Source: Acidobacteriota bacterium
GTDB taxonomy: Bacteria; Acidobacteriota; Terriglobia; Acidiferrales; UBA7541
Assembly (NCBI GenBank): GCA_003154775.1
Contig: PMES01000034.1
Coordinates: forward strand, 1-45,263
Direction of reading: 5' to 3'
DNA: 45,263 nucleotides
Both the position numbers and the translations under genes were made by a program. Position 1 is the first letter of the stretch. Each line of letters opens with the position of its first letter. Of this stretch, positions 534 through 13,647 are shown in pieces. The notes beneath the pieces were generated by a model, which worked only from the letters and a program-made list of their open reading frames with translations, was not told the DNA's origin and ran no database searches.

Positions 534-839
534 TTAGACCTTGGCGAAGATGATTGCCAGCGTAAACAGCGCCAGCGTCTCAATAAAGACCAATCCCAGA
601 ATCATGGCCGTCCGGATCGCGGCAGAAGCTCCCGGATTCCGCGCCATGCCTTCGCAAGCCGACGCCGCCACTCTGCTCTGCCCCAAAGCGCCGCCAAAGG
701 CTGCCAGCGCCATGCCAAACGCGGCCGCAATCGCCAGCGTTCCTTTGCCGCTCACCGCTCCTGCTTCCTGCGCAAACGCGGCCGGCGCAAACAGCGCGAC
801 CGACGCGAGCGCTCCCATCAACATCGCTGCTTTCTTCAT
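534..839 (-). CDS. atpE: ATP synthase F0 subunit c
   Basis: This 101-residue proteolipid forms the rotor ring of F0. Residues 1-23 look like a cleavable signal peptide (Lys-Lys, hydrophobic core, AFA-QE); two transmembrane helices follow, joined by the polar loop ARNP. The ion-binding carboxylate is Glu87 in helix 2, followed by Thr88; helix 1 carries Gln54, exactly 15 residues before the loop proline. Gln plus Glu-Ser/Thr is part of the sodium-binding signature, but the usual Thr at the next position is Leu and the conserved Tyr is Phe92, so ion choice is uncertain. The ATG at 839 is preferred over upstream in-frame starts because AGGAGG precedes it closely. It is the last gene before the terminator. 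Confidence 0.93.
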   Translation of the reverse strand: MKKAAMLMGALASVALFAPAAFAQEAGAVSGKGTLAIAAAFGMALAAFGGALGQSRVAASACEGMARNPGASAAIRTAMILGLVFIETLALFTLAIIFAKV

Positions 840-930
840 TACTGCCTCCTTGAAATTACCGCCAGTTGGTGGTTCCCGGCCCTGCGCCCTGCAACCGGTC
901 TCACACTGGAACGGCAAACTCGAACTTGTC

Positions 931-1752
931 CTAGTGCTCTTCCGCCACGGCCTGCCCGATATAAATCGAAGGCAGCACGGTGAACACATAAGTCTGAATG
1001 ATGGACACGAATATATGCAGGCCGATAAAGAGAATGGGGATCAGTACCGGGAAGATGCCCAGGAGCACCCCCAGCACCGGACTCTTCGACCAACCCCACT
1101 GCGCCGGCCCGATCAGCAAGCCGAGAAAAATCACGTAGATCAGATCGCTGGCGAAAATGTTGGCCCAGAGACGAACGGTGAGCGAGAGGATGCGCGCCGT
1201 GGCGCTGATCATCTCCACGGGGGCAATCAGCCACGACAACCACCACACCGGCCCGGCAAACGTCTTCAAATAGCGAAACGGCCCGAGATGCCGCAACCCC
1301 TGCCAGTTGAAATAGAGGAAGGTGAGCAGCGCGCAGCCCAGCGGCACGATGGGAAGCTTGCCACCGGTCGGCGAACTGAATGCCGGGATCACGCCAAGCA
1401 GGTTGGCCAGAAGAATAAAGACGGAAACGGAGCCGGTGAAAGCAATGAACTTGTGGCCCTCGTGCCCGACGTTTTCTTCCAAAAGGTCCTTGATGCCGAA
1501 ACCCAGAGGATTGGTTAGAAGCATTTCGGCAGCCTGCTGCAGGCCCCCGGGACGTTCCACGGAGAGGCGCGACCTCACGAGCAGCGCCAGCACCGTGCCA
1601 ACAATTAGAACGACCACCGACATCACCAGATACTCGGGGATGGGATGGTGGGGGTCTATGGGTTGCACATGGAACGCGTGCAGGATACCTCGGGCGATGG
1701 GTCCGAGCACGTGATTCACCCACTCTGTCAGCCGGCTTAGATGTTCTTCCAT
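931..1752 (-). CDS. atpB: ATP synthase F0 subunit a
   Basis: This 273-residue polytopic membrane protein is the stator channel that passes ions to the c-ring. The essential arginine is visible as Arg194 in LTVRLWANIF, matching the E. coli Arg210 region. Several hydrophobic helices and a conserved C-terminal helix pair follow. Its ATG abuts the atpI stop codon directly, a strong sign of coupled translation, and atpE follows 91 bases later. Length is normal for the family. Confidence 0.95.
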   Translation of the reverse strand: MEEHLSRLTEWVNHVLGPIARGILHAFHVQPIDPHHPIPEYLVMSVVVLIVGTVLALLVRSRLSVERPGGLQQAAEMLLTNPLGFGIKDLLEENVGHEGHKFIAFTGSVSVFILLANLLGVIPAFSSPTGGKLPIVPLGCALLTFLYFNWQGLRHLGPFRYLKTFAGPVWWLSWLIAPVEMISATARILSLTVRLWANIFASDLIYVIFLGLLIGPAQWGWSKSPVLGVLLGIFPVLIPILFIGLHIFVSIIQTYVFTVLPSIYIGQAVAEEH

Positions 1753-2172
1753 TTATCGGTCCGCGGGTTGCAGGATTTCGTGCACACTCACCGCCATTGT
1801 GGCCGCTCCCAGAGAGCACAGTCCAAAAATCATGCTCAATACGGGAACATGCAGATACTTAAAAATAACATACACGGCCAGGGCTATCAACACGTAGCGA
1901 AACACCGCGCGAAAATAGGTGCCCACGGGCACCTTCGCTTTGGGGCGCTCAGCTTGCGCCGTGGCCGCTTCCGTCAGCGCGTCCAGGCCCTCTTTCAGCC
2001 AGCGAAAGTTGAGCCAGGCCAGCGCTGCGCCGATTAAGATTCCCGAGCCCCAGCGCCAACCGTGGAAATAGCCGACAGGCAGAGCCGCCAGCGCGCCCAG
2101 AAGCAAAGTCAGCCAGGAGATCCGGCGCTCGGAGGCAAGATATCTCGAAATGTCAATGCTTGGACTTTCCAT
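1753..2172 (-). CDS. atpI: ATP synthase subunit I-like membrane protein
   Basis: A small protein of about 139 residues with four hydrophobic segments, in the position and size expected for AtpI, which helps assemble the c-ring in other bacteria. The N-terminal part is short and polar, with a Lys/Arg-rich loop in the middle (AERPKAKVP). I start it at the Met at 2172, which overlaps the end of atpZ by 20 bp; a start at 2202 in the same frame is possible. Assignment rests mainly on context and topology, since this family is poorly conserved. Confidence 0.75.
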   Translation of the reverse strand: MESPSIDISRYLASERRISWLTLLLGALAALPVGYFHGWRWGSGILIGAALAWLNFRWLKEGLDALTEAATAQAERPKAKVPVGTYFRAVFRYVLIALAVYVIFKYLHVPVLSMIFGLCSLGAATMAVSVHEILQPADR

Positions 2173-2428
2173 CGTCGTCTGCGGGAAGACGCCGCAGCAC
2201 ATCGCGCAAGCCGCCGAAGAACCCCAGAAAGCCCAGGACCAGCATTAAGACAGGCTTGGTATGCAGCCAGCGATCCAGAAAATAGCCGATCAGGCCGCCA
2301 ACCGCCACTGCCGCCACAAGCACAAACGGCAGCTCCATGGCCATGGCGAACTGCTGCGAAAATCCCTTGGCCTGCTTCTCCGCGGGAGTCAATTGCTCGT
2401 CGCGTTTTTCGTTATGGTCCGAAGGCAT
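2153..2428 (-). CDS. atpZ: AtpZ/AtpI family small membrane protein
   Basis: The 91-residue product has a charged N-terminus (about 25 residues, many Lys/Glu/Gln) and two transmembrane helices. The pattern GGLIGYFLDRWLHTKP is typical of the AtpZ/AtpI family linked to F0 operons, some members of which form a cation pathway with AtpI. Its start overlaps the end of nuoN by 17 bp, tying the F0 genes to the complex I genes, and its 3' end overlaps atpI. Confidence 0.8.
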   Translation of the reverse strand: MPSDHNEKRDEQLTPAEKQAKGFSQQFAMAMELPFVLVAAVAVGGLIGYFLDRWLHTKPVLMLVLGFLGFFGGLRDVLRRLPADDDGKSKH

Positions 2429-3932
2429 AGCGCGCCAGACGTGCGAACGGCTCAGGATAAATTCCCGCCGCGAGCGTTACGAACAGGGCCGCGCCCAGCG
2501 CCACGGCTTGTGCGCTGCTCATGTGCGGCGCCGGCGCCTCGCCCGGCTTCTTCATCCAGGCATGCACGACCACGCGGAAATAGTAGTACAGCGCGGGCAC
2601 GATATACAGCGCCGCGAAAACCGCCAGCACCGGGTGATGCGATTCGATCAGCGCCTGGAAAATGAAATACTTTGCCATGAAGCCCGCGGTCGGCGGGATA
2701 CCCGCAAGCGACAACATGAAAATCAGCAGCAGCAACGCAACCGCGGGGCTCCGCTGGTACAGCCCATCCAGATCGTCCAGTTCATCGCCGATCAGCCCGC
2801 GCTGGCGCATGACGATCACCACGGCGAACGCGCCGATGGTCATGAAGGCGTACGCGATCAGGTAATACATGATCCCCACAAGCCCCGTCTCATTCCACGC
2901 CACCAGGCCCAGCAGGACGTAGCCCACATGCGAAATCGAGGAATACGCCAACAGCCGCTTCATATTGGTCTGCGTCAGCGCCGCCAGGTTGCCCCACGTC
3001 AGCGAAGCGATCGCGACGCCGGAGATGATGTACACCCAGGTGGTTTGCGAATCCCCGAAGACGTTGATCATCAGCCGCAGGAGCATCGCAAAACTCGCCG
3101 TCGTCGAGGCCACGCTGACGTACGCGGATATGGGCGTGGGCGCTCCTTCGTACACATCCGGGGCCCACTGGTGGAACGGCACCGCCGCCACTTTGAAGAA
3201 CATGCCCGCGGCCACGGTGACAAACGCCATGATCGCCAGCCAATCGGTGATGCCGTTCGATGAGGTGTATGCAAAACGGCGGCCCAGGATGTTGCCAATC
3301 TCCGCGATATTCGTCGAACTGCTCATCCCGTACAGCAACGAGAATCCGTAGGCGAGAATCCCGGTGCTAAACGCGCCCAGCAGCAGGTATTTCATCGCCG
3401 CTTCGTTAGAGCGCTTCTCGCGGCGCAGGAAACCCACCATTGCGTAGAAGCTCAGCGCCATCGTCTCCAACCCAAGGAACAGCACAATAAGGTCAATGCC
3501 CGAGGCCATGAACATCATGCCGATGCAGGAGAACAACAGCAGCGCATAATATTCGCCTTCCTGCTCCTTCTCGATATTCAAATACCGGACGGAGAGCAGA
3601 ATCACCAGCGCGGTGGCGGCAAGAAAAATCATCGCGAAGACCAGGGAGAAGCCGTCCACGATCGCGGTGTTGTGGAAACCGATCAGGACGGGCGGTCCTA
3701 TCTGGCTGACGCGGACATCCCGGTACTTCTGAAACTGCATGAATAAGCCGAGACCGCTGGCCGCAACGCCCACGAGGGCCAGAAACGCGTTCAGGTGCTT
3801 CTCTCGCTTCTCCAGCAGAAAATCAAAAATCAGGATGCCCAGCGCGAACAGGAGCAGCTCCATCTGCGGCAAGACGACCAGGCCGTCGCCGTGGATGTAA
3901 TTCAGGATCGGGTCGAGGAAGGAAAAGTGCAT
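2412..3932 (-). CDS. nuoN: NADH-quinone oxidoreductase subunit N
   Basis: A 506-residue antiporter-like membrane subunit of complex I, with about 14 hydrophobic segments and the conserved core region (NEAAMKYLLLGAFSTGILAYG, residues roughly 175-195, and NMKRLLAYSSISHVGYVLLG further on). It carries one of the proton channels of the membrane arm. It is the last nuo gene; its stop lies inside atpZ. It starts 9 bases after nuoM ends. Confidence 0.95.
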   Translation of the reverse strand: MHFSFLDPILNYIHGDGLVVLPQMELLLFALGILIFDFLLEKREKHLNAFLALVGVAASGLGLFMQFQKYRDVRVSQIGPPVLIGFHNTAIVDGFSLVFAMIFLAATALVILLSVRYLNIEKEQEGEYYALLLFSCIGMMFMASGIDLIVLFLGLETMALSFYAMVGFLRREKRSNEAAMKYLLLGAFSTGILAYGFSLLYGMSSSTNIAEIGNILGRRFAYTSSNGITDWLAIMAFVTVAAGMFFKVAAVPFHQWAPDVYEGAPTPISAYVSVASTTASFAMLLRLMINVFGDSQTTWVYIISGVAIASLTWGNLAALTQTNMKRLLAYSSISHVGYVLLGLVAWNETGLVGIMYYLIAYAFMTIGAFAVVIVMRQRGLIGDELDDLDGLYQRSPAVALLLLIFMLSLAGIPPTAGFMAKYFIFQALIESHHPVLAVFAALYIVPALYYYFRVVVHAWMKKPGEAPAPHMSSAQAVALGAALFVTLAAGIYPEPFARLARYAFGP

Positions 3933-3941
3933 CGGGGTTCC

Positions 3942-5534
3942 TTACTTGACCTCCAGACTTGCCGGAGCGGATGGCGCAACAACCGGCGCAGCGGGCGGCA
4001 ACGCCCTATTGGCTTGCTCGTAAAACTTCGGATTCACCTGCTGGACGATTTTCTCCACCGGCTTGTCAATGTAAGCGAAGAAAGGCTTCGGATAAATGCC
4101 GATCCAGAACGCCAGGGCAACCAGCGGCAGCAGCACCGCGTATTCCCGCACGCTCAGGTCTGGCAGCGTCTTGTTCACGTCGTGCGTCACGTTTCCGAAC
4201 ATCACCCGCTGGTACAGCCACAGCAGATAGGCAGCGCCCAGCACGATGCCCAGCGTGCCCCAGGCCGCCCAGGCTTTGTTCACCACGAACGCGCCCTGCA
4301 AAATCGTGAATTCCCCGATGAACCCGTTGAGGATGGGCATGCCCAGCGAACTTAGCGTAATGATCAGATAGATTGCCGCGAAATTCGGCATTGGCGTGGC
4401 CAACCCGCCGAATTCGGAGATCAGGCGCGTGTGCCGCCGTTCGTAGAGCATGCCAACCAGCAAGAAGAGCGCGCCCGTGGAAATGCCGTGATTGATCTGC
4501 TGCAGCACGCTCCCGGAAAGCCCCTGCGGCGTCAGCGCGAAAATGCCCAGCGTACAGAAGCCCAGGTGGCTGACCGAACTGTACGCGATCAGGCGTTTCA
4601 TGTCCTTCTGCATCAGGCAGACTATCGCGCCATAGATGATGCCGATCAGCGAAAGCAAGATGAGGATATGAATGATCTTTGCGCGCAGGACAGCATCCGC
4701 CGGCAGCAACGGCAGCGAGAAGCGCAGGAAGCCGTACGTGCCCATTTTCAGCAAAACGCCGGCCAGGATGACGGAGCCCGCGGTGGGCGCTTCCGTGTGC
4801 GCATCCGGCAGCCAGGTGTGAAATGGAAACATCGGCACCTTGATGGCAAACGCGAAGAAGAATCCCCAGAAGAGCCAAACCTTCAGCGAATCGGGAAAAT
4901 GCTGCGCCGCGGCCAGCAGCGCGGGCACGTCGAACGTCGGCACGCTCCCCGGCACCTTTGCGGCATTGAAGTACAGCGCCAGGATGCCCAGCAGCATGAT
5001 GACGGAGCCCGCCAGCGTGTACAGAAAGAACTTGATCGCGGCATACAGCCGCCGCTCGCTGCCCCACACGCCGATCAGGAAGTACATGGGCACCAGCATC
5101 ACTTCCCAGAACACGTAGAACAGGAAGAAATCGAGCGACATGAAGACGCCAAGCATGCCCGTCTGCAGCAGGAGCAGCAGAATGTAGTACTCCTTGGTGC
5201 GCGTATGGATGGCGGTCCACGAGGAAGTAATCGCGATCATGCCGAGCAAAGTGGTGAGCATAACCAGCAGCAGGGTGATGCCATCAATGCCCAGCGCGTA
5301 TTTCGCGCCGATGGAAGGAATCCAGTTCGCGGTTTCGCGGAAGGCGTAGTCATTGCTGCCCACTGGGAAGTGAATCACCAGCGGCACGGAAACCAGAAAG
5401 CCGAGCACGCCAAAGAGATTGCCGACGACGCGGTGGAGCATCTGCGCGTCGCGTGGAATGAATAGCAGGAGCATCGCGCCCACCAGCGGGGTGAACAGCA
5501 CCACGCTCAGGAGATGATCATGAAAAAGCCCCAT
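3942..5534 (-). CDS. nuoM: NADH-quinone oxidoreductase subunit M
   Basis: A 530-residue antiporter-like subunit of the membrane arm. Conserved parts seen include FYVFWEVMLVPMYFLIG (with the key channel glutamate), PMFPFHTWLPDAHTEAPT, and DMKRLIAYSSVSHLGF. The C-terminus ends in a low-complexity Pro/Ala tail of about 20 residues after the last helix, which is not part of the conserved core. ATG at 5534 follows a short GAAAGG motif. It lies between nuoL and nuoN with gaps of about 10 bases. Confidence 0.95.
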   Translation of the reverse strand: MGLFHDHLLSVVLFTPLVGAMLLLFIPRDAQMLHRVVGNLFGVLGFLVSVPLVIHFPVGSNDYAFRETANWIPSIGAKYALGIDGITLLLVMLTTLLGMIAITSSWTAIHTRTKEYYILLLLLQTGMLGVFMSLDFFLFYVFWEVMLVPMYFLIGVWGSERRLYAAIKFFLYTLAGSVIMLLGILALYFNAAKVPGSVPTFDVPALLAAAQHFPDSLKVWLFWGFFFAFAIKVPMFPFHTWLPDAHTEAPTAGSVILAGVLLKMGTYGFLRFSLPLLPADAVLRAKIIHILILLSLIGIIYGAIVCLMQKDMKRLIAYSSVSHLGFCTLGIFALTPQGLSGSVLQQINHGISTGALFLLVGMLYERRHTRLISEFGGLATPMPNFAAIYLIITLSSLGMPILNGFIGEFTILQGAFVVNKAWAAWGTLGIVLGAAYLLWLYQRVMFGNVTHDVNKTLPDLSVREYAVLLPLVALAFWIGIYPKPFFAYIDKPVEKIVQQVNPKFYEQANRALPPAAPVVAPSAPASLEVK

Positions 5535-5546
5535 GCGGTTCGCCTT

Positions 5547-7694
5547 TCAGCGCAAATTGCGCACAATCATATGCATGTGGTGGCCGTAATAGCCTAATAA
5601 GATCGCCAGGCCCAGCAGGATCAGCACGGCGTAACTCGAAAACACGCCGGTCTGGAACATGCGCACCGGCACGCTCAGCCCATTGGTGATCTTGCCGGCC
5701 AGGTTCACCAGGCCGTCAATAACCCACTTATCCCACCACATCGAAATCCGGGAAATCACGCGCGCCAGCCACCCCGCGCCATCCACGCCGACACCATCGA
5801 TCAGCTTGGCATCCACGACGCCGAATGCCGTGCTCAAATCTTTGACGCGGTTCACAAATAGCGCGTCGTAAATTTCGTCCACGTAGTACTTGTTGATCAG
5901 CAAATTGTGCAAACGCGGCCACGCTGCGGCGACCTTGGAATGCAGCTTCGGGTACTGCAGATAGAGGCGATACGCAAGCCATATGCCCAGCGTGGCGATA
6001 CCGACGGAGGCCATCATCAGCAAATATTCCTTGAACAAAGTGTGGTGCCCAACTTCGACGCCACCGATTTCGTCCTTCACGCCCCTCAACGCCGGCTCCA
6101 GGAATGTGCCAAATGTGTTGTTCTCCCCCCAAAGCACCGGAAGCGCAAACCAGCCGCCACAGATCGAAAGAAACGCCAGGATCATCAGCGGCACCGTCAT
6201 GGACTTCGGCGACTCGTGGATGTGCTCTTCCAACTCCGTCGCGACACGCGAACGGCCCCGAAAAACCTGAAAGAACAGCCGGAACATATAGAACGCGGTG
6301 ATCCCCGCCGTAACCACTCCAATCGCCCAGAGAAACAGGTAGCGATCCATGATCAACGACTCGTTGTGGCGATTAAACACGTGGCCCAGTATTTCGTCCT
6401 TACTGAAAAAGCCCGCCAGCGGGGGGATGCCGGCGATGGCCAGCGTGGCAATCAGAAAGGGCCGCGAGGTGGCCGGAATGGTGTTCCACAGTCCACCCAT
6501 CTTGCGCAAGTCCTGTTCACCGGATAGCGCGTGAATCACACTGCCGGCCCCGAGGAAGAGCAGGGCTTTAAAAAAAGAGTGGGTCATCAAGTGGAAAATG
6601 CCGGCCGAGAACGCGCCAACGCCCAGCGCCAGAAACATGTAGCCGAGCTGGCTGATGGTGGAATACGCCAGAACCTTCTTGATGTCGTTCTGCGCCACGG
6701 CCATGGAAGCGGCGAAAATGGCCGTCGTGGCGCCGACGATTGCGACCACATCCATCGCCACCGGCGCCAATTGGTAGATCGCGCTCATGCGCGCCACCAT
6801 GTACACGCCCGCGGTCACCATCGTCGCCGCGTGGATCAACGCGCTCACCGGCGTGGGGCCTTCCATCGCGTCGGGCAACCAGACGTACAGCGGCACTTGC
6901 GCGGATTTTCCGGTAGCTCCGACGAAAAGCAACAACGCAATGCCGGTAAGAATCGGCGCGCCATAGGCCAGGCGTCCCTGGTCCACCATCGCCCGCAGCG
7001 TTTCCAGGATTCCCGCATACGCGACCGGATCGCTCAGCATTTGCGAAGTGAACCGTACCGTACCAAATGTCGTGGCGATCAGGAAAATACCAAGCAAGAA
7101 ACCCGTATCGCCAATGCGATTGACGATGAAAGCTTTCTTTCCCGCATCCGCGGCAGATTTCTTCAAAAAGTAGAAACCAATCAGCAGGTAGCTGCAGAGC
7201 CCCACGCCTTCCCAGCCCACAAAAAGAAGCAGGAGATTATTCGCCAGCACCAGCGTCAGCATCGAAAACATGAACAGGTTCATGTAGCCGAAGAACCGGT
7301 AGTAACCGCCCTCGTGGCCCATGTACCCGATCGAATAGACGTGGATCAGAAAGCCCACGCCGGTCACCACCAGCACCATCACGCAAGAGAGCGGATCGAG
7401 GAGATAGCCCCAATCGGCCACGAAGTTGACCAGGCCGCCGGGTCCGGGCATCGCTCCCGGCGTGATCCATTCAAAAAGAATCTGCTGGTAAACGCGATTC
7501 TCCGGCGCGACTGCAAGGAGCTGGAAAACCGCGCCCGCCGCGTGCACAAACGAGAGGAAGACGCTGCCCACGCAGAAGAAGCTCACCGCCGAGCGCGGCA
7601 AGCGGCGGCCAATCAGCAGCATGAGCGCAGCGGTCACCAGCGGAAAAAGCGGGATGAGCCAGAGATGCTCGAGGAAGTAGCCGGAGGGAGTCAT
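5547..7694 (-). CDS. nuoL: NADH-quinone oxidoreductase subunit L
   Basis: The largest antiporter-like subunit, about 715 residues from the ATG at 7694, which has GGGAG about 9 bases upstream (an in-frame GTG at 7727 is less likely). Conserved blocks include FVGWEGVGLCSYLLIGFYF, KSAQVPLYVWLPDAMEGPTPVSA and NDIKKVLAYSTISQLGYMF. The C-terminal part contains the long lateral helix region and a final transmembrane helix (about residues 520-715). It pumps protons and braces the membrane arm. Gap to nuoK is 58 bases. Confidence 0.95.
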   Translation of the reverse strand: MTPSGYFLEHLWLIPLFPLVTAALMLLIGRRLPRSAVSFFCVGSVFLSFVHAAGAVFQLLAVAPENRVYQQILFEWITPGAMPGPGGLVNFVADWGYLLDPLSCVMVLVVTGVGFLIHVYSIGYMGHEGGYYRFFGYMNLFMFSMLTLVLANNLLLLFVGWEGVGLCSYLLIGFYFLKKSAADAGKKAFIVNRIGDTGFLLGIFLIATTFGTVRFTSQMLSDPVAYAGILETLRAMVDQGRLAYGAPILTGIALLLFVGATGKSAQVPLYVWLPDAMEGPTPVSALIHAATMVTAGVYMVARMSAIYQLAPVAMDVVAIVGATTAIFAASMAVAQNDIKKVLAYSTISQLGYMFLALGVGAFSAGIFHLMTHSFFKALLFLGAGSVIHALSGEQDLRKMGGLWNTIPATSRPFLIATLAIAGIPPLAGFFSKDEILGHVFNRHNESLIMDRYLFLWAIGVVTAGITAFYMFRLFFQVFRGRSRVATELEEHIHESPKSMTVPLMILAFLSICGGWFALPVLWGENNTFGTFLEPALRGVKDEIGGVEVGHHTLFKEYLLMMASVGIATLGIWLAYRLYLQYPKLHSKVAAAWPRLHNLLINKYYVDEIYDALFVNRVKDLSTAFGVVDAKLIDGVGVDGAGWLARVISRISMWWDKWVIDGLVNLAGKITNGLSVPVRMFQTGVFSSYAVLILLGLAILLGYYGHHMHMIVRNLR

Positions 7695-7752
7695 GGCCGC
7701 CGTCTCCCAAAGAAGCGGGGCTCGCACTGCACTCGCGATGATGGCGCGCGCT

Positions 7753-8055
7753 TCACCATTTCAGAAGATCCATTTCATCCTCAAGCACCGTTTCGCGGTT
7801 GCGGAAGAAGGCGATGATAATGCCGAGCCCCACCACTGCTTCCGCGGCGGCGTCCGCGATAATGAACAGCGCAAAAACCTGCCCGGCAACGTCCCCAAAA
7901 ATCCGCGAAAACGCCACCAGGTTGATGTTCACGGCATTCAGAATCAGCTCGATGGACATCAGCACCACGATCACGTTGCGCCGCGTAATCACGCCGATGG
8001 CGCCGATCAGAAAGAGCGCCATGCTCAAAAACAGGTAGTAGCCGATAGGCATCAT
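7753..8055 (-). CDS. nuoK: NADH-quinone oxidoreductase subunit K
   Basis: A 100-residue protein with three transmembrane helices, the usual length. The two buried glutamates needed for proton transfer are at Glu36 (MSIELILNAVN) and Glu72 (DAAAEAVVGL), the same numbers as in E. coli NuoK. It begins with two Met codons; the first is used here. It follows nuoJ by 6 bases. Confidence 0.96.
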   Translation of the reverse strand: MMPIGYYLFLSMALFLIGAIGVITRRNVIVVLMSIELILNAVNINLVAFSRIFGDVAGQVFALFIIADAAAEAVVGLGIIIAFFRNRETVLEDEMDLLKW

Positions 8056-8061
8056 CGCGTT

Positions 8062-8580
8062 CTAGGTCCTTTTCTTGGCCATCACCACGGCTCCCACCAT
8101 GGCCACCAGCAGCAAAACACTGGCAATCTCAAACGGCAGCAGGTACGCATCGAACAAGCGGCCCGCCAGCGCTTCGGTATTCGGCGGCAATTTTCCTGCC
8201 GGCACGGCGTTGGGCAGCAAGAAGCCCTGGCCGGGAACCTTGCGCGACGACCACAGCATCACCCCCACCTCCAGGGCGAGTGCCAGCGTCACGAGCAGCG
8301 CCACCCATTTTTGCCGCGAAAACTGAATCTGGTGCAGGGCCACATCCAGCCGCACCAGCATGATCACGAAAACAAACAGCACCATGATCCCGCCGACATA
8401 CAAAATGATCTGCGCGATGAAAATGAATTCCGCGCGCAGTTGCAGGAAGATGCCCGCGGTGGCCAGCAGGGTGGTAATCAGGAACACGGCGCTGTGAATG
8501 GCGTTGCGCCGCGTCACCATCAGCCCGGCGCTGAGGATCGCCACACCGGCGAAGAAAAAGAAGATGACCTTATCCAGCAT
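8062..8580 (-). CDS. nuoJ: NADH-quinone oxidoreductase subunit J
   Basis: A 172-residue membrane subunit with five hydrophobic helices. The signature FIFIAQIILYVGGIMVLFVF, including the helix that forms the pi-bulge in known structures, is present at about residues 52-71. A longer polar loop (about 112-140) precedes the last helix. Its start overlaps the end of nuoH by 11 bp. In most nuo operons nuoI lies between H and J; here there is no room for it. Confidence 0.95.
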   Translation of the reverse strand: MLDKVIFFFFAGVAILSAGLMVTRRNAIHSAVFLITTLLATAGIFLQLRAEFIFIAQIILYVGGIMVLFVFVIMLVRLDVALHQIQFSRQKWVALLVTLALALEVGVMLWSSRKVPGQGFLLPNAVPAGKLPPNTEALAGRLFDAYLLPFEIASVLLLVAMVGAVVMAKKRT

Positions 8581-9931
8581 AGGAGTCCTCAGTCGAAGGC
8601 TCTTCCGGTGGCGGCGCCGCCGAAGAAGCCGCCGCTGCGCGCTTGTCGTTCAAACGCAGCAGGAAAAGCGCCGTGGCCAGTGTGATCACCGTAGTCAGCA
8701 GCATCGCCAGCCAGCGGTTCCAGCCATATTCCATTTCCAGAATCATGGCCACGCCCACGGCCAGCACGTTCACGATCGCCAGTGGAATCAGAATGTACCA
8801 GCCCAGGTGCATCAACTGGTCGAAGCGGTAGCGCGGCAGCGTAAAGCGCAGCCACATAAACAGGTAAATGTAAGCGCTGATCTTCAGCAGAAACCAGAAT
8901 GCGCCGTGCAGCCCGGGCACCAGGAACTTCAGCGGCGCCACCAGCAGCGGCACGGCCAGGATCAGCGCCACCACAAAACACGCCAGCGCCACTCCCCACA
9001 TGAACCATGTCTGCACGCGCACCGGTTGCTTTCCTGCACGGTATACGCAATACGCGCCCACCGCGGCCGTGAATAGCGCGGGCAAAGCATCCAGCCAGTT
9101 CATCCAACGCACATTCGGGAACGGCCGCAGCCAGCCGCCCAGAAACAGCGTCGTCGCCACGGCGCCAACCACGATCATGTTGGCATACTCGCCAAGAAAA
9201 TAAAGCGCCCAGCGGAAGCCGCTGTATTCGGTCATGTAACCGGCCACGAGCTCCGATTCCGCTTCCGGCAAATCAAACGGTGCGCGATTCGTTTCCGCGA
9301 TCGAAGCCACCACGTAGATAAAGAAAGCCACCGGTGCAAGGAACACGAACCACACGCCAAAATGCTGCTGAGCGTCCACGATGGCGCGAATCTTCAGCGT
9401 TCCCGCCAGCAGCAAGCCGCTGACCAGCGCCAGCCCCGCCGCGGTTTCGTAGCTGACCAACTGCGCCGTGCTGCGAAGCGCGCCCATGATTGAATAGTGG
9501 CTGTTCGACGCCCAACCGCCCAGCACAATGCCAAAGATTCCCAGCGAACTGACGCCGATCACAAAAAGCAGACCCACGTTGATATCGCGCGCCACCTGAA
9601 ACGCCGGCCCAAACGCAATCGCTCCCATCGATGTTAGCGCCGCCGTCATGGACACCACCGGCGCAATCCAGAACACCACTTTGTCCGCGTTATCCGGGAT
9701 GATGTCTTCCTTGATCAGCAACTTCACCGCGTCGGCAATGGGCTGCAACAATCCGTGCGGCCCCACGCGCATCGGCCCAAGCCGCGCCTGCATGTCGGCC
9801 ATCAGCTTGCGTTCCATGAGAACGATGTAGCCGGCAACAAGCGGTACCACGGCGACAATGACGACGCCGGAGACCAGTTCGACCCACCACGTCTGCACGA
9901 ACGCCAGCACGGCTTGAAGCGTGGGACTCAT
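8570..9931 (-). CDS. nuoH: NADH-quinone oxidoreductase subunit H
   Basis: This 453-residue subunit links the membrane and peripheral arms and forms part of the quinone chamber. Conserved features include MERKLMADMQARLGPMRVGPHG near the N-terminus and the acidic quinone-side loop AETNRAPFDLPEAESELVAGY with ETEYSG-like continuation. The ATG at 9931 lies 4 bases after the nuoD stop; the longer in-frame reading to 10087 runs into nuoD and is rejected. An alanine/proline/glutamate-rich tail of about 25 residues follows the last helix. nuoE, F and G, which often lie between D and H, are absent. Confidence 0.95.
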   Translation of the reverse strand: MSPTLQAVLAFVQTWWVELVSGVVIVAVVPLVAGYIVLMERKLMADMQARLGPMRVGPHGLLQPIADAVKLLIKEDIIPDNADKVVFWIAPVVSMTAALTSMGAIAFGPAFQVARDINVGLLFVIGVSSLGIFGIVLGGWASNSHYSIMGALRSTAQLVSYETAAGLALVSGLLLAGTLKIRAIVDAQQHFGVWFVFLAPVAFFIYVVASIAETNRAPFDLPEAESELVAGYMTEYSGFRWALYFLGEYANMIVVGAVATTLFLGGWLRPFPNVRWMNWLDALPALFTAAVGAYCVYRAGKQPVRVQTWFMWGVALACFVVALILAVPLLVAPLKFLVPGLHGAFWFLLKISAYIYLFMWLRFTLPRYRFDQLMHLGWYILIPLAIVNVLAVGVAMILEMEYGWNRWLAMLLTTVITLATALFLLRLNDKRAAAASSAAPPPEEPSTEDSYAG

Positions 9932-9935
9932 GGCG

Positions 9936-11063
9936 TTAGCGATCCACCTCGCCAAGAACGATGTCCAGCGTGCCGATGATGGCCACCACGTCGGCCACCA
10001 AATGTCCGCGCGCCATTTTGTCCAGCGCCTGCAAGTTGATGAATGACGGCGGCCGAATACGCACGCGATACGGCTGCGTCGTACCATCGCTCACAATGTA
10101 ATAGCCCAGGATGCCCTTGGGCGCTTCAATGGAGTGATAAATCTCGCCAGCGGGCGGCTTCAACACTTTGCCCACCTTGCCCATGATCGGCCCTGCGGGA
10201 ATATTTTCGATCGCTTGCAGGCAGATCAGCCGTGATTGCCGCATCTCCTCCATGCGCACCATGTAGCGGTCGTAAGTGTCGCCGTTGGTGCCCACGGGAA
10301 TTTCAAATTTGTACTGGTCGTAGGCGGCATAGGGCTGCGCTTTGCGGAGGTCCCATTTCACGCCGCTGGCGCGCAGCACGGGCCCTGAAGCGCCCAGCGC
10401 GATGCACTCCTCGGCACTAAGCACGCCAACGTTCCGCGTGCGCCCGATCCAGATGCTGTTGCCGGTCAGGAGATCCACGTACTCCTGTATGCGGCGCTCG
10501 AAATCCTTGCAGAAGCGCTCCACATCTTTTTCAAACGAGTCGTAGGCTTCGTACTGCAGCCCGCCGATGCGGAATGCGTGCGTGGTCAGGCGCGCCCCGC
10601 AATACTTCTCGAAGATCTTCAGGATCTCTTCGCGTTCGCGCAAGCAGTAAAACAGCGGCGTCAGCGCCCCAATGTCCAGCGCGTGCGTGCCCAGCCAAAT
10701 AAGGTGGCTGGCGATGCGCTGCAATTCCGTCATGATCGTGCGGATGACTTTCGCGCGCGGTGGCGCTTCCACGTTCAGCAGTTTTTCCACCGCTTCGCAG
10801 TAGCCCAGCCCGTTGCTCACCGCCGCCACGTAATCCATGCGGTCCACGTACGGCGCAAATTGCTGGTACGAGCGGTTTTCCGCGATCTTCTCCACACCGC
10901 GGTGCAGATACCCGATGACACACTCCGTGCCGCGCACGCGTTCGCCATCCAGCTTCAACTTCACACGCAGCACGCCGTGCGTGGAAGGATGCTGCGGCCC
11001 CATGTTGAGGACCAGTTCGTCGGCGCCCAGTAGCGTCTGATTTTGCGCTGCGTCGTCTTGCAA
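9936..11063 (-). CDS. nuoD: NADH-quinone oxidoreductase subunit D
   Basis: The 49-kDa subunit that forms the quinone site with Nuo[11 protein letters not shown] near the N-terminus contains the conserved quinone-site histidine; the protein ends in [12 protein letters not shown], the family's invariant C-terminus. Length (375) is short of some homologues but complete. The only nearby start is TTG at 11063, preceded by GGAAGG with a short spacer; no ATG is available upstream in frame, so the start is less sure than the gene. nuoC ends 54 bases upstream. Confidence 0.95.
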
Positions 11064-11117
11064 AGTACCTTCCAGGTTCGTGCTGCCGAATCGCTCTCGC
11101 GTTCGCCTGCTCTGCTG

Positions 11118-11795
11118 CTACTGCCCGCTCGCGATCCCCAGATTTTCCCGGACCCAGGCGGTGTCCTGCTGCAAAATGTCGTAATCCTTGCGCAGTGGAT
11201 GCCCCTGCCACTCCTCGGGCAGAAGAATGCGCTTCATATCCGGATGTCCGTTGAAGGAAATGCCGAACATATCGAAAATTTCGCGCTCCAGCCAATTCGC
11301 GGTCGGCCAAATCTCCACAAGACTAGCCGCCGTTTCGTCGGCCGCCAGCGGAATCTTCAGCCGCAGCCGCATGTTGTGCGGAAACGAATAGAGAATGGCG
11401 ATCAGATCGAAACGCTTCTCGCGGCGCGGCCAATCCACGGCCGTGTAGTCTTCCAGAAGATCGAATTTCTCGACGTCGCGCGAGTAGCGCGCAATTTCCG
11501 CCAATTGCGTTGCGGCAATGACCAGGTACGGCTGCTTGCGGTCCTCAATGGCGTCCAAAATCGCGGCGCCAAATTGCTCCCGGTAACGTTTCGTTAAATC
11601 GTTGTCCAGCGGAATCTGCATAACTACGGGCGGCTTCGGAGGCGGCGGCGCGGGCCTGGCGGGTGCGGCAGGCTTTGCCGCTGGAAACGGGGCAGCCTCG
11701 GCGCTCGCGGGCGCAGTGGGCGGCGCCGACTTAGCGCCAGCACTATCAGGCTTGGGACTTTCGGGCGACTGGGGTGCCTTGGGCTCGTCTGCCAT
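11118..11795 (-). CDS. nuoC: NADH-quinone oxidoreductase subunit C with Pro/Ala-rich N-terminal extension
   Basis: The 30-kDa subunit of complex I. The core (from about residue 58) contains the conserved run WLEREIFDMFGISFNGHPDMKRILLPEEW in full and KDYD near the end. Ahead of the core is a 58-residue tail made almost only of Pro, Ala, Lys and Ser, which is absent from typical NuoC and probably disordered. Start taken at the ATG at 11795; another ATG at 11810 is possible and neither has a strong ribosome site. A good sigma-70-like promoter lies 185 bases upstream, so nuoC may begin its own transcript. Confidence 0.93.
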   Translation of the reverse strand: MADEPKAPQSPESPKPDSAGAKSAPPTAPASAEAAPFPAAKPAAPARPAPPPPKPPVVMQIPLDNDLTKRYREQFGAAILDAIEDRKQPYLVIAATQLAEIARYSRDVEKFDLLEDYTAVDWPRREKRFDLIAILYSFPHNMRLRLKIPLAADETAASLVEIWPTANWLEREIFDMFGISFNGHPDMKRILLPEEWQGHPLRKDYDILQQDTAWVRENLGIASGQ

Positions 11796-11979
11796 GGACC
11801 CTGGGACCATTGGGCTGCAAAGTGGGGGCTCATCAGAACCGAAAGAAGCCCCGATTCATTCCCCTGAGAATGACCGCAAATAAGGCCGCGCGCAAAAGGA
11901 AGGAGCGAGAACGCGCAAGCCAGTCTGCAGGCGGACACACTCATTGGCGACCTGGCTGCCAACAGGATCGCTCCCTGCG

Positions 11980-12008
11980 TTTCTAACACACGCAGTGAGA
12001 GCAGTCAA
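11980..12008 (-). promoter_or_regulatory. Predicted sigma-70 promoter for nuoC onward
   Basis: On the minus strand TTGACT (12003-12008) and TAGAAA (11980-11985) are separated by exactly 17 bases. The site is in the 418-base space between nuoA and nuoC, oriented toward nuoC, and implies a 5' leader of about 180 bases. The rest of this space (11796-12213) shows no believable gene; in particular I find no trace of a nuoB remnant. Confidence 0.5.
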
Positions 12009-12154
12009 TGCGCGCCGCCACATGCGTGAAAAACATCCTGAAGTTCTCCGTTACCGGAAAGCTCCCGTCAGGACTCGCTTTCACGGTTTGCTGAAAAAGG
12101 GCAATTTGTTGTTATTCCGCTTGCTCCGAGTGTTTGGCGGACCCCAGTTCGCTT

Positions 12155-12180
12155 GTCATCCCGAGCGCAGCGAGGGATCT
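12155..12180. repeat. GTCATCCCGAGCG-type dispersed repeat
   Basis: The sequence starting GTCATCCCGAGCG and ending GAGGGATCT lies just downstream of nuoA on its transcribed strand. It resembles the first part of the element at 54-128. Repeats of this form are widespread between genes in several bacterial phyla, including Acidobacteriota; that is remembered knowledge rather than a search result. Confidence 0.55.
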
Positions 12181-12213
12181 GCTTTTCGCAAGAGTTATTG
12201 AATGAGGCAGGTT

Positions 12214-12588
12214 CTAAGCCCAGTCAAGCGCGCCCTTTTTATACAACCACGCGTAGCCAACCAGCAGGATGCCCAAAAAGACGAACATGGAAACCAGCGC
12301 GAACGCGCCCATGTGGTTCACTACCCAAGAGCGATACAGAATCGCCCACGGAAACAGGAACATCGTTTCCACGTCGAAGATTACGAAAAGCATGGCCACC
12401 ACGTAGAACCGCGCCGAATAGCGGCCGCGGGCGTTGCTTTCCGGCGGAATGCCGCACTCATAAGGCTGCAATTTGGCCGGGCCGCCCCGCGATTCCGGGC
12501 GAATCAATTTGAAAATCAGCAGCGCGAGAACGGGGAACGACAGAACCAGCAACGCAAAAATGAGAACCGGGATGTACGCCTCAGGCAT
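12214..12588 (-). CDS. nuoA: NADH-quinone oxidoreductase subunit A
   Basis: A 124-residue three-helix membrane subunit. Conserved PYECG (with the flexible-loop cysteine) and FYVVAMLFVIFDVETMFLFP are present. ATG at 12588 is preceded by GAGAGG six bases upstream; the longer in-frame start at 12615 lacks this. It is separated from nuoC by 418 non-coding bases, and nuoB, its usual neighbour, is missing. proC lies 108 bases upstream on the same strand. Confidence 0.95.
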   Translation of the reverse strand: MPEAYIPVLIFALLVLSFPVLALLIFKLIRPESRGGPAKLQPYECGIPPESNARGRYSARFYVVAMLFVIFDVETMFLFPWAILYRSWVVNHMGAFALVSMFVFLGILLVGYAWLYKKGALDWA

Positions 12589-12696
12589 GGCATGCCTCTC
12601 CGGGCATCGTACCACAACTCCTCACAAAGTGAGTTCCAGGCGCGCGGGCCACGCAAGTCTTGCGGTGCGCTTTTTGTGCTGCGATTTGCGACGCGT

Positions 12697-13524
12697 CTAT
12701 TTCTCGAACAGCAATTCGCCGGCGCGCTGGGTAGCTTTTACCACCGCCTTGATCAGCGTCACGCGCAGCTTCCCTTCCTCAAGTTCGAGTATGCCGTCGA
12801 TGGTGCAGCCGGCCGGAGTCGTCACCGCGTCTTTCAACAAGGCGGGATGATCGCCCGTCTCGAGCACGACGCTGGCCGCGCCCTTCATCGTTTGCGACGC
12901 CAGCAGCGTGGCGATGTCGCGCGGCAAACCCACCTTCACCCCGGCTTCGGCGAGCGATTCCAGAATGATGTAGGCAAACGCGGGGCCGCTGGCGGAAAGG
13001 CCGGTGACCGCATCCATGTTTTTCTCGTCAACCACCACCGTGCGGCCCACGGCATTGAACATGGCTTCCGCAATTTCCAGGTGCTCGGCGGAGGCGTGCG
13101 CGCCTCGGCAGATACCGGTCATGCCGCAGCCCACTGCGGAGCAAGTATTGGGCATGGCGCGCACTACGGCAGTCTTGGCGCCGGCGCGCTGTTCGATGTA
13201 CGCGGTGGGCACGGAAGCCGCCACCGAAATGATCAGCGTGTCCTTGCCAAGTTCTGGCGCAATTTCCTTTAGGACGTCGCCAACCACCTGCGGCTTCACG
13301 GCCAGAAGCACGATGTCCGCACCGTGGACGGCTTTGCGATTGTCTGTTGTGCCGTTGACGCCCAGCCCTTTTGCAAGCGCCGCGGCCTTTTCCTCGTGGC
13401 GCACCGTGGCGGTTACGCGCTTCGGCGCGAACAGCCCTTGCTTAAGATAGGCGCGCAACAGGATGCTGCCGAGCTTACCGGTGCCAAGTACGGCGAGAGT
13501 CTTGTCTGAAAGTTTCGTAGGCAT
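12697..13524 (-). CDS. proC: Pyrroline-5-carboxylate reductase
   Basis: Last step of proline synthesis: NAD(P)H-dependent reduction of pyrroline-5-carboxylate. The 275-residue product has an N-terminal Rossmann motif (VLGTGKLGS, about residues 12-20), the AVKPQ motif, and the C-terminal dimer signature DAVTGLSASGPAFAYIILE followed by KDAVTTPAGCTIDG. The Met at 13524 matches the family start; the reading to 13590 adds an unrelated leader. No strong ribosome site is seen. It sits between mogA and nuoA on the same strand with gaps over 100 bases, so cotranscription with either is unproven. Confidence 0.94.
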   Translation of the reverse strand: MPTKLSDKTLAVLGTGKLGSILLRAYLKQGLFAPKRVTATVRHEEKAAALAKGLGVNGTTDNRKAVHGADIVLLAVKPQVVGDVLKEIAPELGKDTLIISVAASVPTAYIEQRAGAKTAVVRAMPNTCSAVGCGMTGICRGAHASAEHLEIAEAMFNAVGRTVVVDEKNMDAVTGLSASGPAFAYIILESLAEAGVKVGLPRDIATLLASQTMKGAASVVLETGDHPALLKDAVTTPAGCTIDGILELEEGKLRVTLIKAVVKATQRAGELLFEK

Positions 13525-13647
13525 GATGCAAACATTGTTACGGACGCAACGAAAACCGTCAACAAGCGAATCGTGGGGGCAGGCCTGCAAAGGAAGACCG
13601 ATCCGTCCCGTGCGGATGTTACGAAACCCTGCTCAGGCAATCGTCTG

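What the first reader, a model, noticed from the sequence alone, without database searches (positions are those of the whole stretch)
2412..12588. Complex I cluster lacking every flavin and iron-sulfur subunit
Seen: nuoA, C, D, H, J, K, L, M, N are present and intact; nuoB, E, F, G and I are absent. The joints are tight (D-H 4 bases; H-J overlap 11 bp), so E/F/G and I were not simply missed, and the 418-base A-C gap is smaller than nuoB and shows no remnant of it. Known: B, E, F, G and I are exactly the subunits that carry FMN and Fe-S clusters. The split follows the cofactor line rather than the usual module line (NuoEFG only). Inference: the redox subunits are in a second locus, perhaps regulated with Fe-S supply, or the complex uses a different electron-input arm.
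Basis: partly seen in the sequence, partly recalled or inferred. Interest (0 to 1): 0.68.

Follow-up and report, generated by a model that had tools for sequence, protein, structure and literature searches.

The report
Second, NADH-module-less complex I, split genes
This soil bacterium carries a second, smaller version of the respiratory enzyme complex I that lacks the part that takes electrons from NADH; two of its missing genes lie elsewhere in the genome, so the odd gene list is real but is best explained by a known kind of enzyme whose genes have drifted apart.

Summary
In detail: nuoA, C, D, H, J, K, L, M, N are intact at 2412-12588; B, E, F, G and I are absent. The genome also carries a canonical nuo cluster (contig C146: A, C, D, fused EF, G, H, J-N), itself without B and I, plus two stand-alone nuoB and two stand-alone nuoI genes.

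Across 121 genomes of the class, window-type NuoD, one nuoB type (contig C20 here) and one nuoI type (C9) occur in the same 59; the other 62 have none of the three. In 36 of the 59 that nuoI lies in the cluster; in 4 that nuoB does too. So the window encodes nine subunits of an 11-subunit complex I without NADH module, completed by remote nuoB and nuoI. The "cofactor line" is a coincidence of two histories: E/F/G were not found inside any window-type cluster examined, whereas B and I left separately.

The electron donor is unproven. Low-potential ferredoxin is most likely (PFOR/OFOR family in 56 of 59). A borrowed NADH module stays possible: canonical clusters often adjoin, but genome G011 seems to have only this complex I.

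Leads: a Rieske ferredoxin gene follows this nuoB in 31 of 59; NuoC has a Pro/Ala-rich tail.

The parts
12214..12588 (-). nuoA (ORF extends to a GTG at 12615)
   Evidence: PF00507 114 bits; ORF
11118..11795 (-). nuoC, with a Pro/Ala-rich N-terminal tail of about 60 residues (ORF extends to 11810)
   Evidence: PF00329 141 bits; tail compared
9936..11063 (-). nuoD, short-loop type (lacks about 25 positions of PF00346 that the C146 NuoD has)
8570..9931 (-). nuoH (longest ORF starts at 10087; the start at 9931 gives the 4-base gap to nuoD)
   Evidence: PF00146 380 bits
8062..8580 (-). nuoJ
   Evidence: PF00499 127 bits
7753..8055 (-). nuoK
   Evidence: PF00420 101.6 bits
5547..7694 (-). nuoL (ORF extends to a GTG at 7727)
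   Evidence: TIGR01974 720.7 bits
3942..5534 (-). nuoM
   Evidence: TIGR01972 606.6 bits
2412..3932 (-). nuoN
   Evidence: TIGR01770 423.3 bits
11796..12213 (.). A-C gap, the place of nuoB in relatives L140-L143; no nuoB remnant seen; holds CCTCGCTGCGCTCGGGATGACA at 12154-12175 (minus strand)
534..2428 (-). atpZ, atpI, atpB and atpE (F-ATP synthase a and c subunits) after nuoN; in three relatives these lie between two convergent nuo clusters
   Evidence: Pfam; synteny
12697..13590 (-). proC, neighbour upstream of nuoA, not part of the complex
   Evidence: TIGR00112 273 bits

Best explanation
The window encodes nine subunits of an 11-subunit complex I that has no NADH-oxidising module (NuoEFG). 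The two remaining subunits, the Fe-S proteins NuoB (N2 cluster) and NuoI (N6a and N6b), come from unlinked genes in the same genome: nuoB at C20:12989-13555 and nuoI at C9:33181-33672. The assembled complex would take electrons at NuoI from a soluble low-potential carrier, most likely reduced ferredoxin, pass them through N6a, N6b and N2 to menaquinone, and pump protons through NuoL, M and N. It stands beside a separate canonical complex I (contig C146) that oxidises NADH. Shown here: gene content, strict co-occurrence, intact cysteine motifs in NuoB and NuoI, and relatives with B and I in place. Inferred: assembly of the complex, ferredoxin as donor, menaquinone as acceptor, and proton pumping.
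For: Window-type NuoD, C20-type NuoB and C9-type NuoI occur in the same 59 of 121 genomes and in none of the other 62 (tallied). The three vary together within genera: G094 alone of the nine sampled members of g1 lacks all three; in g5 G116 has all three while G041, G074 and G104 lack them; in g15 G013 has all three while G004, G073, G081, G103 and G118 lack them. This nuoI lies 12-1762 bp after nuoD on the same strand in 36 of 59; this nuoB lies upstream of nuoC in 4 of 59. L140 and L141 read A-B-C-D-H-I-J-K-L-M-N with no E, F or G inside. Among 80 related NuoD loci, nuoI of this type is inside in 27, and nuoB, EF and G are found in none (many loci are cut by contig ends). NuoI (C9) keeps both CxxCxxCxxxCP motifs and NuoB (C20) its CC, C and C (sequences printed; meaning as ligands recalled). 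NuoD keeps the aligned HPxxHG and DRxDYV segments of solved 49-kDa subunits (meaning as quinone site recalled). PF01855 (PFOR/OFOR) is in 56 of 59 carriers and 47 of 62 non-carriers; this genome has four PF01855 matches, one in a 1,229-aa protein of PFOR type. G011 (99% complete) has one NuoD match, of window type, and its one NuoF homologue stands beside an ORF that I read as formate dehydrogenase.
Against: Nothing shows that the proteins assemble or are expressed together. Co-occurrence is not corrected for relatedness; the identity thresholds were set after seeing the scores; NuoI calls in G078 and G092 rest on fragments, and NuoD in G116 and G006 is partial. C9-type NuoI scores 112.4 bits against the curated NuoI cut-off of 113.05, and the window NuoD 513.4 against 522 for PRK12322 while it passes the general NuoD model TIGR01962 (497.7 against 459.35). 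G055, G060 and G085 carry the complex but have no PF01855 match. No ferredoxin gene was seen in the window cluster. Clusters with NuoEFG adjoin the window type in many relatives: canonical nuoD lies 22-25 kb away on the opposite strand in 15 of 59 carriers (my reading of the rows), and in G092 a 14-gene cluster precedes it in tandem.
Confidence: 0.8

Rival explanations
1. The window's 11-subunit core borrows the NADH module (fused NuoEF plus NuoG) of the canonical cluster, so one N-module serves two membrane arms.
For: 44 of 59 carriers have a C146-type NuoD among the listed rows (retyped, counted). In G005, G090 and G110 the two clusters converge; in 15 of 59 the canonical nuoD is 22-25 kb away on the opposite strand (rows); in G092 a 14-gene cluster and in L119 a C146-like cluster directly precede the window-type one. 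14 of 59 carriers have exactly one NuoF-family match.
Against: G011 shows no second NuoD, and its one NuoF homologue sits beside a formate-dehydrogenase-like ORF; G085 has no NuoF over the cut-off and only the window-type NuoD, though its assembly may be incomplete. NuoE and NuoG were not searched in G011 and G085. The two complexes keep separate, type-specific NuoB and NuoI.
Confidence: 0.15
2. A soluble Rieske [2Fe-2S] ferredoxin, encoded directly after this nuoB, is the dedicated electron partner of the complex.
For: The gene follows C20-type nuoB on the same strand at 36-437 bp in 31 of 59 carriers from six families, including this genome.
Against: It is adjacent in 0 of 25 carriers of families f3, f4, f6 and f9. 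Relatives of the protein occur in genomes without the complex, such as G094 at 66% identity. Dioxygenase-type Rieske ferredoxins are recalled to be near -150 mV, weak for full proton pumping into menaquinone. Gene order may simply be inherited from one relocation of nuoB.
Confidence: 0.1
3. A hydrogenase diaphorase (HoxEFU-like; contigs C109 and C66) serves as the N-module, as has been proposed for cyanobacteria.
For: This genome has two further NuoE/NuoF homologue sites beside genes that I read as hydrogenases. Two or more NuoF-family matches occur in 44 of 59 carriers against 25 of 62 non-carriers.
Against: 15 of 59 carriers have at most one NuoF-family match, so it cannot be general.
Confidence: 0.05
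4. The cluster is a degenerating spare copy, or the missing genes are an assembly artefact.
For: The genome is a 150-contig draft and the cluster lies 2.4 kb from a contig end.
Against: All nine genes are intact; the same kind of cluster stands in 80 loci of other genome records, and its B and I partners accompany it in 59 of 59 carriers.
Confidence: 0.02

Closest known systems
[quoted passage not shown] recalled also for Bacillus)
   Same: Core without NADH module, soluble donor unknown. PMC11238625 reports that a search for a donor conserved in all such bacteria failed, and favours PFOR and ferredoxin. The window NuoD scores best against PRK12322 (513.4 bits, cut-off 522), recalled as a Bacillus-type model.
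   Different: Here nuoB and nuoI are unlinked from the other nine genes and a canonical complex I is present in the same genome. The gene order in Desulfitobacterium was not looked at.
Canonical NADH:quinone oxidoreductase of the same genome (contig C146)
   Same: Homologous A, C, D, H, J-N; its nuoB and nuoI are also not in the cluster.
   Different: Has a fused NuoEF and NuoG; its NuoD scores best against TIGR01962 (556.5 bits); canonical NuoC lacks the Pro/Ala-rich tail in the 4 copies measured.
Photosynthetic NDH-1 of cyanobacteria
   Same: No NuoEFG; accepts electrons from ferredoxin (PMC9414918, passages read); dispersed genes (recalled).
   Different: Has NdhS, NdhO and NdhV for ferredoxin binding according to the same paper; not looked for here. 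The window NuoD scores lower against PRK07415, the NdhH-type model (384.9 bits), than against PRK12322.
Campylobacter-type complex I fed by flavodoxin (named in PMC12361115, section 10 read)
   Same: Works without a functional NADH module, on a soluble carrier.
   Different: Not compared by sequence here.
F420H2 dehydrogenase (Fpo) of methanogens
   Same: FpoD aligns with the window NuoD in one stretch.
   Different: The Fpo models listed all score under their curated cut-offs; FpoF was not sought.

Membership tests
11-subunit complex I (no N-module) | Subunits A, C, D, H, J, K, L, M, N present and intact | tested here: met
11-subunit complex I (no N-module) | NuoB and NuoI that belong to the same complex | tested here: met
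   59 of 59 co-occurrence and 62 of 62 joint absence; both genes inside the cluster in L140 and L141. Physical membership is inferred.
11-subunit complex I (no N-module) | No NuoE, F, G inside the cluster | tested here: met
   0 of 80 related loci and none inside the window-type clusters; E/F/G occur in neighbouring canonical clusters
11-subunit complex I (no N-module) | Intact ligands of N2, N6a and N6b | tested here: met
   Cysteine motifs read from the C20 NuoB and C9 NuoI sequences; motif meaning recalled
11-subunit complex I (no N-module) | Assembled, quinone-reducing and proton-pumping enzyme with a non-NADH donor | not testable with these tools
   Needs biochemistry
Canonical 14-subunit NADH:quinone oxidoreductase | NuoEFG as part of the complex | tested here: inconclusive
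   No E/F/G in the cluster, and G011 has no NuoF homologue except one beside a formate-dehydrogenase-like ORF; borrowing from the canonical cluster is not excluded
Canonical 14-subunit NADH:quinone oxidoreductase | NuoD passes the general NuoD model | tested here: met
   TIGR01962 497.7 bits against 459.35, but in two stretches (one against PRK06075, PRK12322 and FpoD); the C146 NuoD matches TIGR01962 in one. It does not separate the two kinds by itself.
Cyanobacterial NDH-1 | NdhS/NdhO/NdhV ferredoxin-docking subunits | not tested
   No search made

The most novel reading that the evidence does not exclude
A soil lineage runs two complex I enzymes in parallel. The second is fed not by NADH but by a dedicated small carrier, the Rieske ferredoxin co-encoded with its NuoB, docked with the help of the Pro/Ala-rich NuoC tail: an electron-input arm of complex I that I did not find described in the paper searches made.
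Probability: 0.08. Interest if true: 0.75.

Novelty: new variant of a known kind. Interest (0 to 1): 0.42.

Why it matters
What feeds complex I when it has no NADH module is an open question (stated for the 11-subunit enzyme in PMC11238625). This lineage makes it testable by genomics: 59 of 121 sampled genomes carry the complex and 62 do not, the two states differ within single genera, and at least one genome (G011) seems to have only this complex I. The case also shows that 'absent from the operon' is not 'absent from the complex': a survey that groups subunits by gene distance (250 bp in PMC12361115, passages read) would be expected to file this as a partial complex I.

Tried and rejected
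Fe-S or cofactor line as the rule of the split: rejected, because E/F/G stay in the C146 cluster while B and I are outside both clusters. C119-type nuoB lies within 20 kb of the C146-type nuoD in 0 of 69 genomes listed for both, and C78-type nuoI in 0 of 47. For that count I used the listed rows only (the lists are truncated by the tool) and left out rows of other types: 15 NuoB rows with 54-61% identity that belong with a third kind of NuoD (46-51% identity over its whole length) in families f8 and f10, the 14 NuoD rows of that kind, and 16 NuoI rows of 42-50% identity. In G092 one such further type is a 14-gene cluster with B and I in place, so dispersal of B and I holds for the C146 type, not for every NADH-oxidising complex I of the class.

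Spare or decaying copy: rejected (intact, conserved, with co-inherited partners). NuoB remnant in the A-C gap: none seen. Consensus promoter in the A-C gap: none found by the scan.

HoxEFU, a second NuoF, or PFOR/OFOR as universal donor: each is missing in some carriers. Conserved neighbours of the relocated nuoI: it sits before a gene that I read as galT-like in 11 of 14 loci fetched, no redox partner seen. A first neighbourhood script lost the bait in 12 of 21 nuoB loci and 4 of 14 nuoI loci because it kept the longest ORFs; one search replaced it. The relative L141 printed no ORFs in the B-C range and was not reread.

Literature: searches gave no paper that, in the listings, describes this complex in Acidobacteriota or a nuoB-Rieske pair. 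I read passages of PMC12361115 (and its section 10), PMC11238625, PMC8407424 and PMC9414918; the rest only as listings. The library lacks most subscription journals, so this is weak evidence of absence.

Changed after checking against the calls: the G092 and L119 neighbourhoods raised the borrowed-module rival from 0.12 to 0.15 and lowered the best explanation from 0.82 to 0.80.
Full report
What is there. The nine nuo genes at 2412-12588 are real, intact and tightly packed on the minus strand: nuoA, C, D, H, J, K, L, M, N (ORFs; families). Upstream lies proC; downstream lie atpZ, atpI, atpB and atpE. Profile searches put no NuoB, NuoE or NuoF on this contig and only a weak ferredoxin-motif match for NuoI; NuoG was not searched by profile. 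By the nearest named records the genome is an Acidobacteriota MAG close to Candidatus Acidiferrum typicum (98% identical NuoD, L044).

The rest of the genome. Contig C146 carries a second nuo cluster: A, C, D, a fused NuoEF of 604 aa, G, H, J, K, L, M, N. It too lacks B and I. Two nuoB genes (C119 and C20) and two nuoI genes (C78 and C9) stand apart from any nuo cluster in the stretches fetched. The other NuoB-family, NuoE and NuoF homologues lie beside genes that I read as hydrogenases (C109, C66, C87, C138). So the genome holds the genes for two complexes, one with and one without an NADH module, and both have B and I at remote loci.

Which B and I belong to the window cluster. Three searches over the same 121 genomes of the class answered this. 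Window-type NuoD (68% identity or more) is in 59. C20-type NuoB (68% or more; at least 267 bits against at most 227 for the rest) is in 59. C9-type NuoI (62% or more; fragments only in G078 and G092) is in 59. The three sets are identical, and 62 genomes have none of the three. Fisher's test gives 5e-36 for NuoD and NuoB, without correction for relatedness; but the state also varies within genera g1, g5 and g15, always for all three genes together. Two NuoD calls are partial (G116, G006). Seven carriers show two rows for this NuoI (G043, G054, G061, G067, G068, G078, G080); in G043, G067, G068 and G080 one row is in the cluster and one on another contig, which looks like relocation by copying.

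Gene order confirms it. C9-type nuoI lies 12-1762 bp after nuoD on the same strand in 36 of 59, and C20-type nuoB begins 3.6-5.3 kb before the end of nuoD in 4 of 59 (L140-L143). L140 and L141 hold A-B-C-D-H-I-J-K-L-M-N in one place. In L140 a Methyltransf_28 gene (PF02636) sits between B and C, and similar ORFs stand there in L142 and L143; L141 was not read there. Among 80 related loci from named genomes nuoI is inside in 27, and nuoB, EF and G in none (several loci are short). By family, nuoI is in the cluster in f6 15/15, f5 8/9, f4 6/6, f9 3/3, f10 2/4, f2 1/1 and f3 1/1, and in none of f1 (17 genomes, including this one), f7 (2) or f11 (1).

Therefore the five absences have two causes. 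E, F and G were not seen inside any window-type cluster examined. B and I were members and left, separately. The match to the list of flavin and Fe-S subunits is a coincidence. What remains unexplained is that the C146-type complex also has B and I outside its cluster: C119-type nuoB is within 20 kb of C146-type nuoD in 0 of 69 genomes listed for both, and C78-type nuoI in 0 of 47 (rows of other types were left out, see Tried and rejected). This is not true of every NADH-oxidising complex I in the class: G092 has a further type with all 14 genes together.

How it probably works. The C20 NuoB keeps the CC-C-C cysteines and the C9 NuoI both CxxCxxCxxxCP motifs, so the path N6a-N6b-N2 should exist. 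NuoD aligns with solved 49-kDa subunits, including the HPxxHG and DRxDYV segments, and lacks about 25 positions of PF00346 that the C146 NuoD has. PRK12322 fits it best (513.4 bits, cut-off 522); it also passes the general model TIGR01962 (497.7, cut-off 459.35) but in two stretches, while PRK12322, PRK06075 and FpoD align in one. Electrons would enter at NuoI. Reduced ferredoxin is the best candidate on energetic grounds (recalled) and by precedent (PMC11238625, passages read): PF01855 is in 56 of 59 carriers and 47 of 62 non-carriers, and this genome has four PF01855 matches, one in a 1,229-aa protein of PFOR type. But three carriers (G055, G060, G085) have none, so no tested donor family is universal.

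Could it borrow an NADH module? Clusters with NuoEFG are often neighbours. C146-type NuoD is listed in 44 of 59 carriers (from the rows). In 15 of 59 it lies 22-25 kb from the window-type nuoD on the opposite strand (rows). In L119 a C146-like cluster and in G092 a complete 14-gene cluster directly precede the window-type one in tandem. Against borrowing as a general rule: G011, 99% complete, shows one NuoD, of window type, and a single NuoF homologue beside a 949-aa ORF that I read as formate dehydrogenase; G085 shows one NuoD and no NuoF over the cut-off. A dedicated second NuoF is also not general: 14 carriers have one NuoF-family match and one has none. NuoE and NuoG were not searched in those genomes.

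Two leads. First, the relocated nuoB is followed after 36-437 bp on the same strand by a gene for a soluble Rieske ferredoxin (PF00355 in the three copies scanned) in 31 of 59 carriers: f1 16/17, f2 1/1, f5 7/9, f7 2/2, f10 4/4, f11 1/1, and 0 of 25 in f3, f4, f6 and f9. Of the three exceptions in f1 and f5, two have nuoB 299 (G022) and 108 (G044) bases from a contig end (coordinates). In this genome the pair is at L015 6990-7556 and 6566-6868. Against a functional reading: relatives of the Rieske protein occur without the complex (G094, 66%). Second, window-type NuoC has a Pro/Ala-rich N-terminal tail: 82 of 87 copies have ten or more prolines before the core, against 0 of 4 canonical NuoC. 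Copies whose frame ran off the locus were dropped, length was counted from the first ATG or GTG of the open frame, and some loci are the same record, so the 87 are not fully independent.

Synteny. In G005, G090 and G110 the two nuo clusters converge on each other with atpZ, I, B and E between them. In this genome C112 begins with those atp genes and C146 begins with the end of the canonical nuoN, so the two contigs probably adjoin. E, F and G of the other complex would then lie some 7-11 kb, plus an unknown gap, beyond the window's edge, inside their own cluster.

Verdict. I rate it a new variant of a known kind, of moderate interest; the value lies in the clean set of carriers and non-carriers for finding the electron donor.

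Noticed in passing
L015:6566-6868 (-), beside nuoB at L015:6990-7556: Soluble Rieske [2Fe-2S] ferredoxin gene directly after the relocated nuoB in 31 of 59 carriers, six families.
   Followed up: partly
window 11118-11795: NuoC has a Pro/Ala-rich N-terminal tail, present in 82 of 87 measured window-type copies and 0 of 4 canonical ones.
   Followed up: partly
G000:C146:1-13462 and C119, C78: The C146-type complex I also has nuoB and nuoI outside its cluster (0 of 69 and 0 of 47 within 20 kb of its nuoD), and NuoE and NuoF are fused in this genome.
   Followed up: partly
L198, L199 (G092:C108): A third, divergent nuo type with all 14 genes including B and I directly precedes the window-type cluster in tandem.
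   Followed up: partly
L140:3770-4759: A Methyltransf_28 (PF02636) gene lies between nuoB and nuoC in L140; similar ORFs stand there in L142 and L143. Human NDUFAF7 methylates NDUFS2, the NuoD homologue, and is needed for assembly (PMC3829151, abstract in listing); that NDUFAF7 belongs to the same family is recalled.
   Followed up: no
L144, L147, L148, L151: Convergent nuo2 - atpZ/I/B/E - nuo1 superlocus: two complex I clusters with ATP synthase a/c genes between them.
   Followed up: partly
L081, L082, L098 and others: nuoA was not detected in 33 of 80 loci (some are cut by contig ends), among them loci in which nuoI directly follows nuoD and nuoH has moved to the end of the cluster.
   Followed up: no
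G043, G067, G068, G080: Two copies of C9-type nuoI, one in the cluster and one elsewhere: possible intermediates of the relocation.
   Followed up: no
window 12154-12175: The A-C gap holds CCTCGCTGCGCTCGGGATGACA, one copy in the window; I recall similar stretches as dispersed intergenic repeats in Acidobacteriota, not tested.
   Followed up: no
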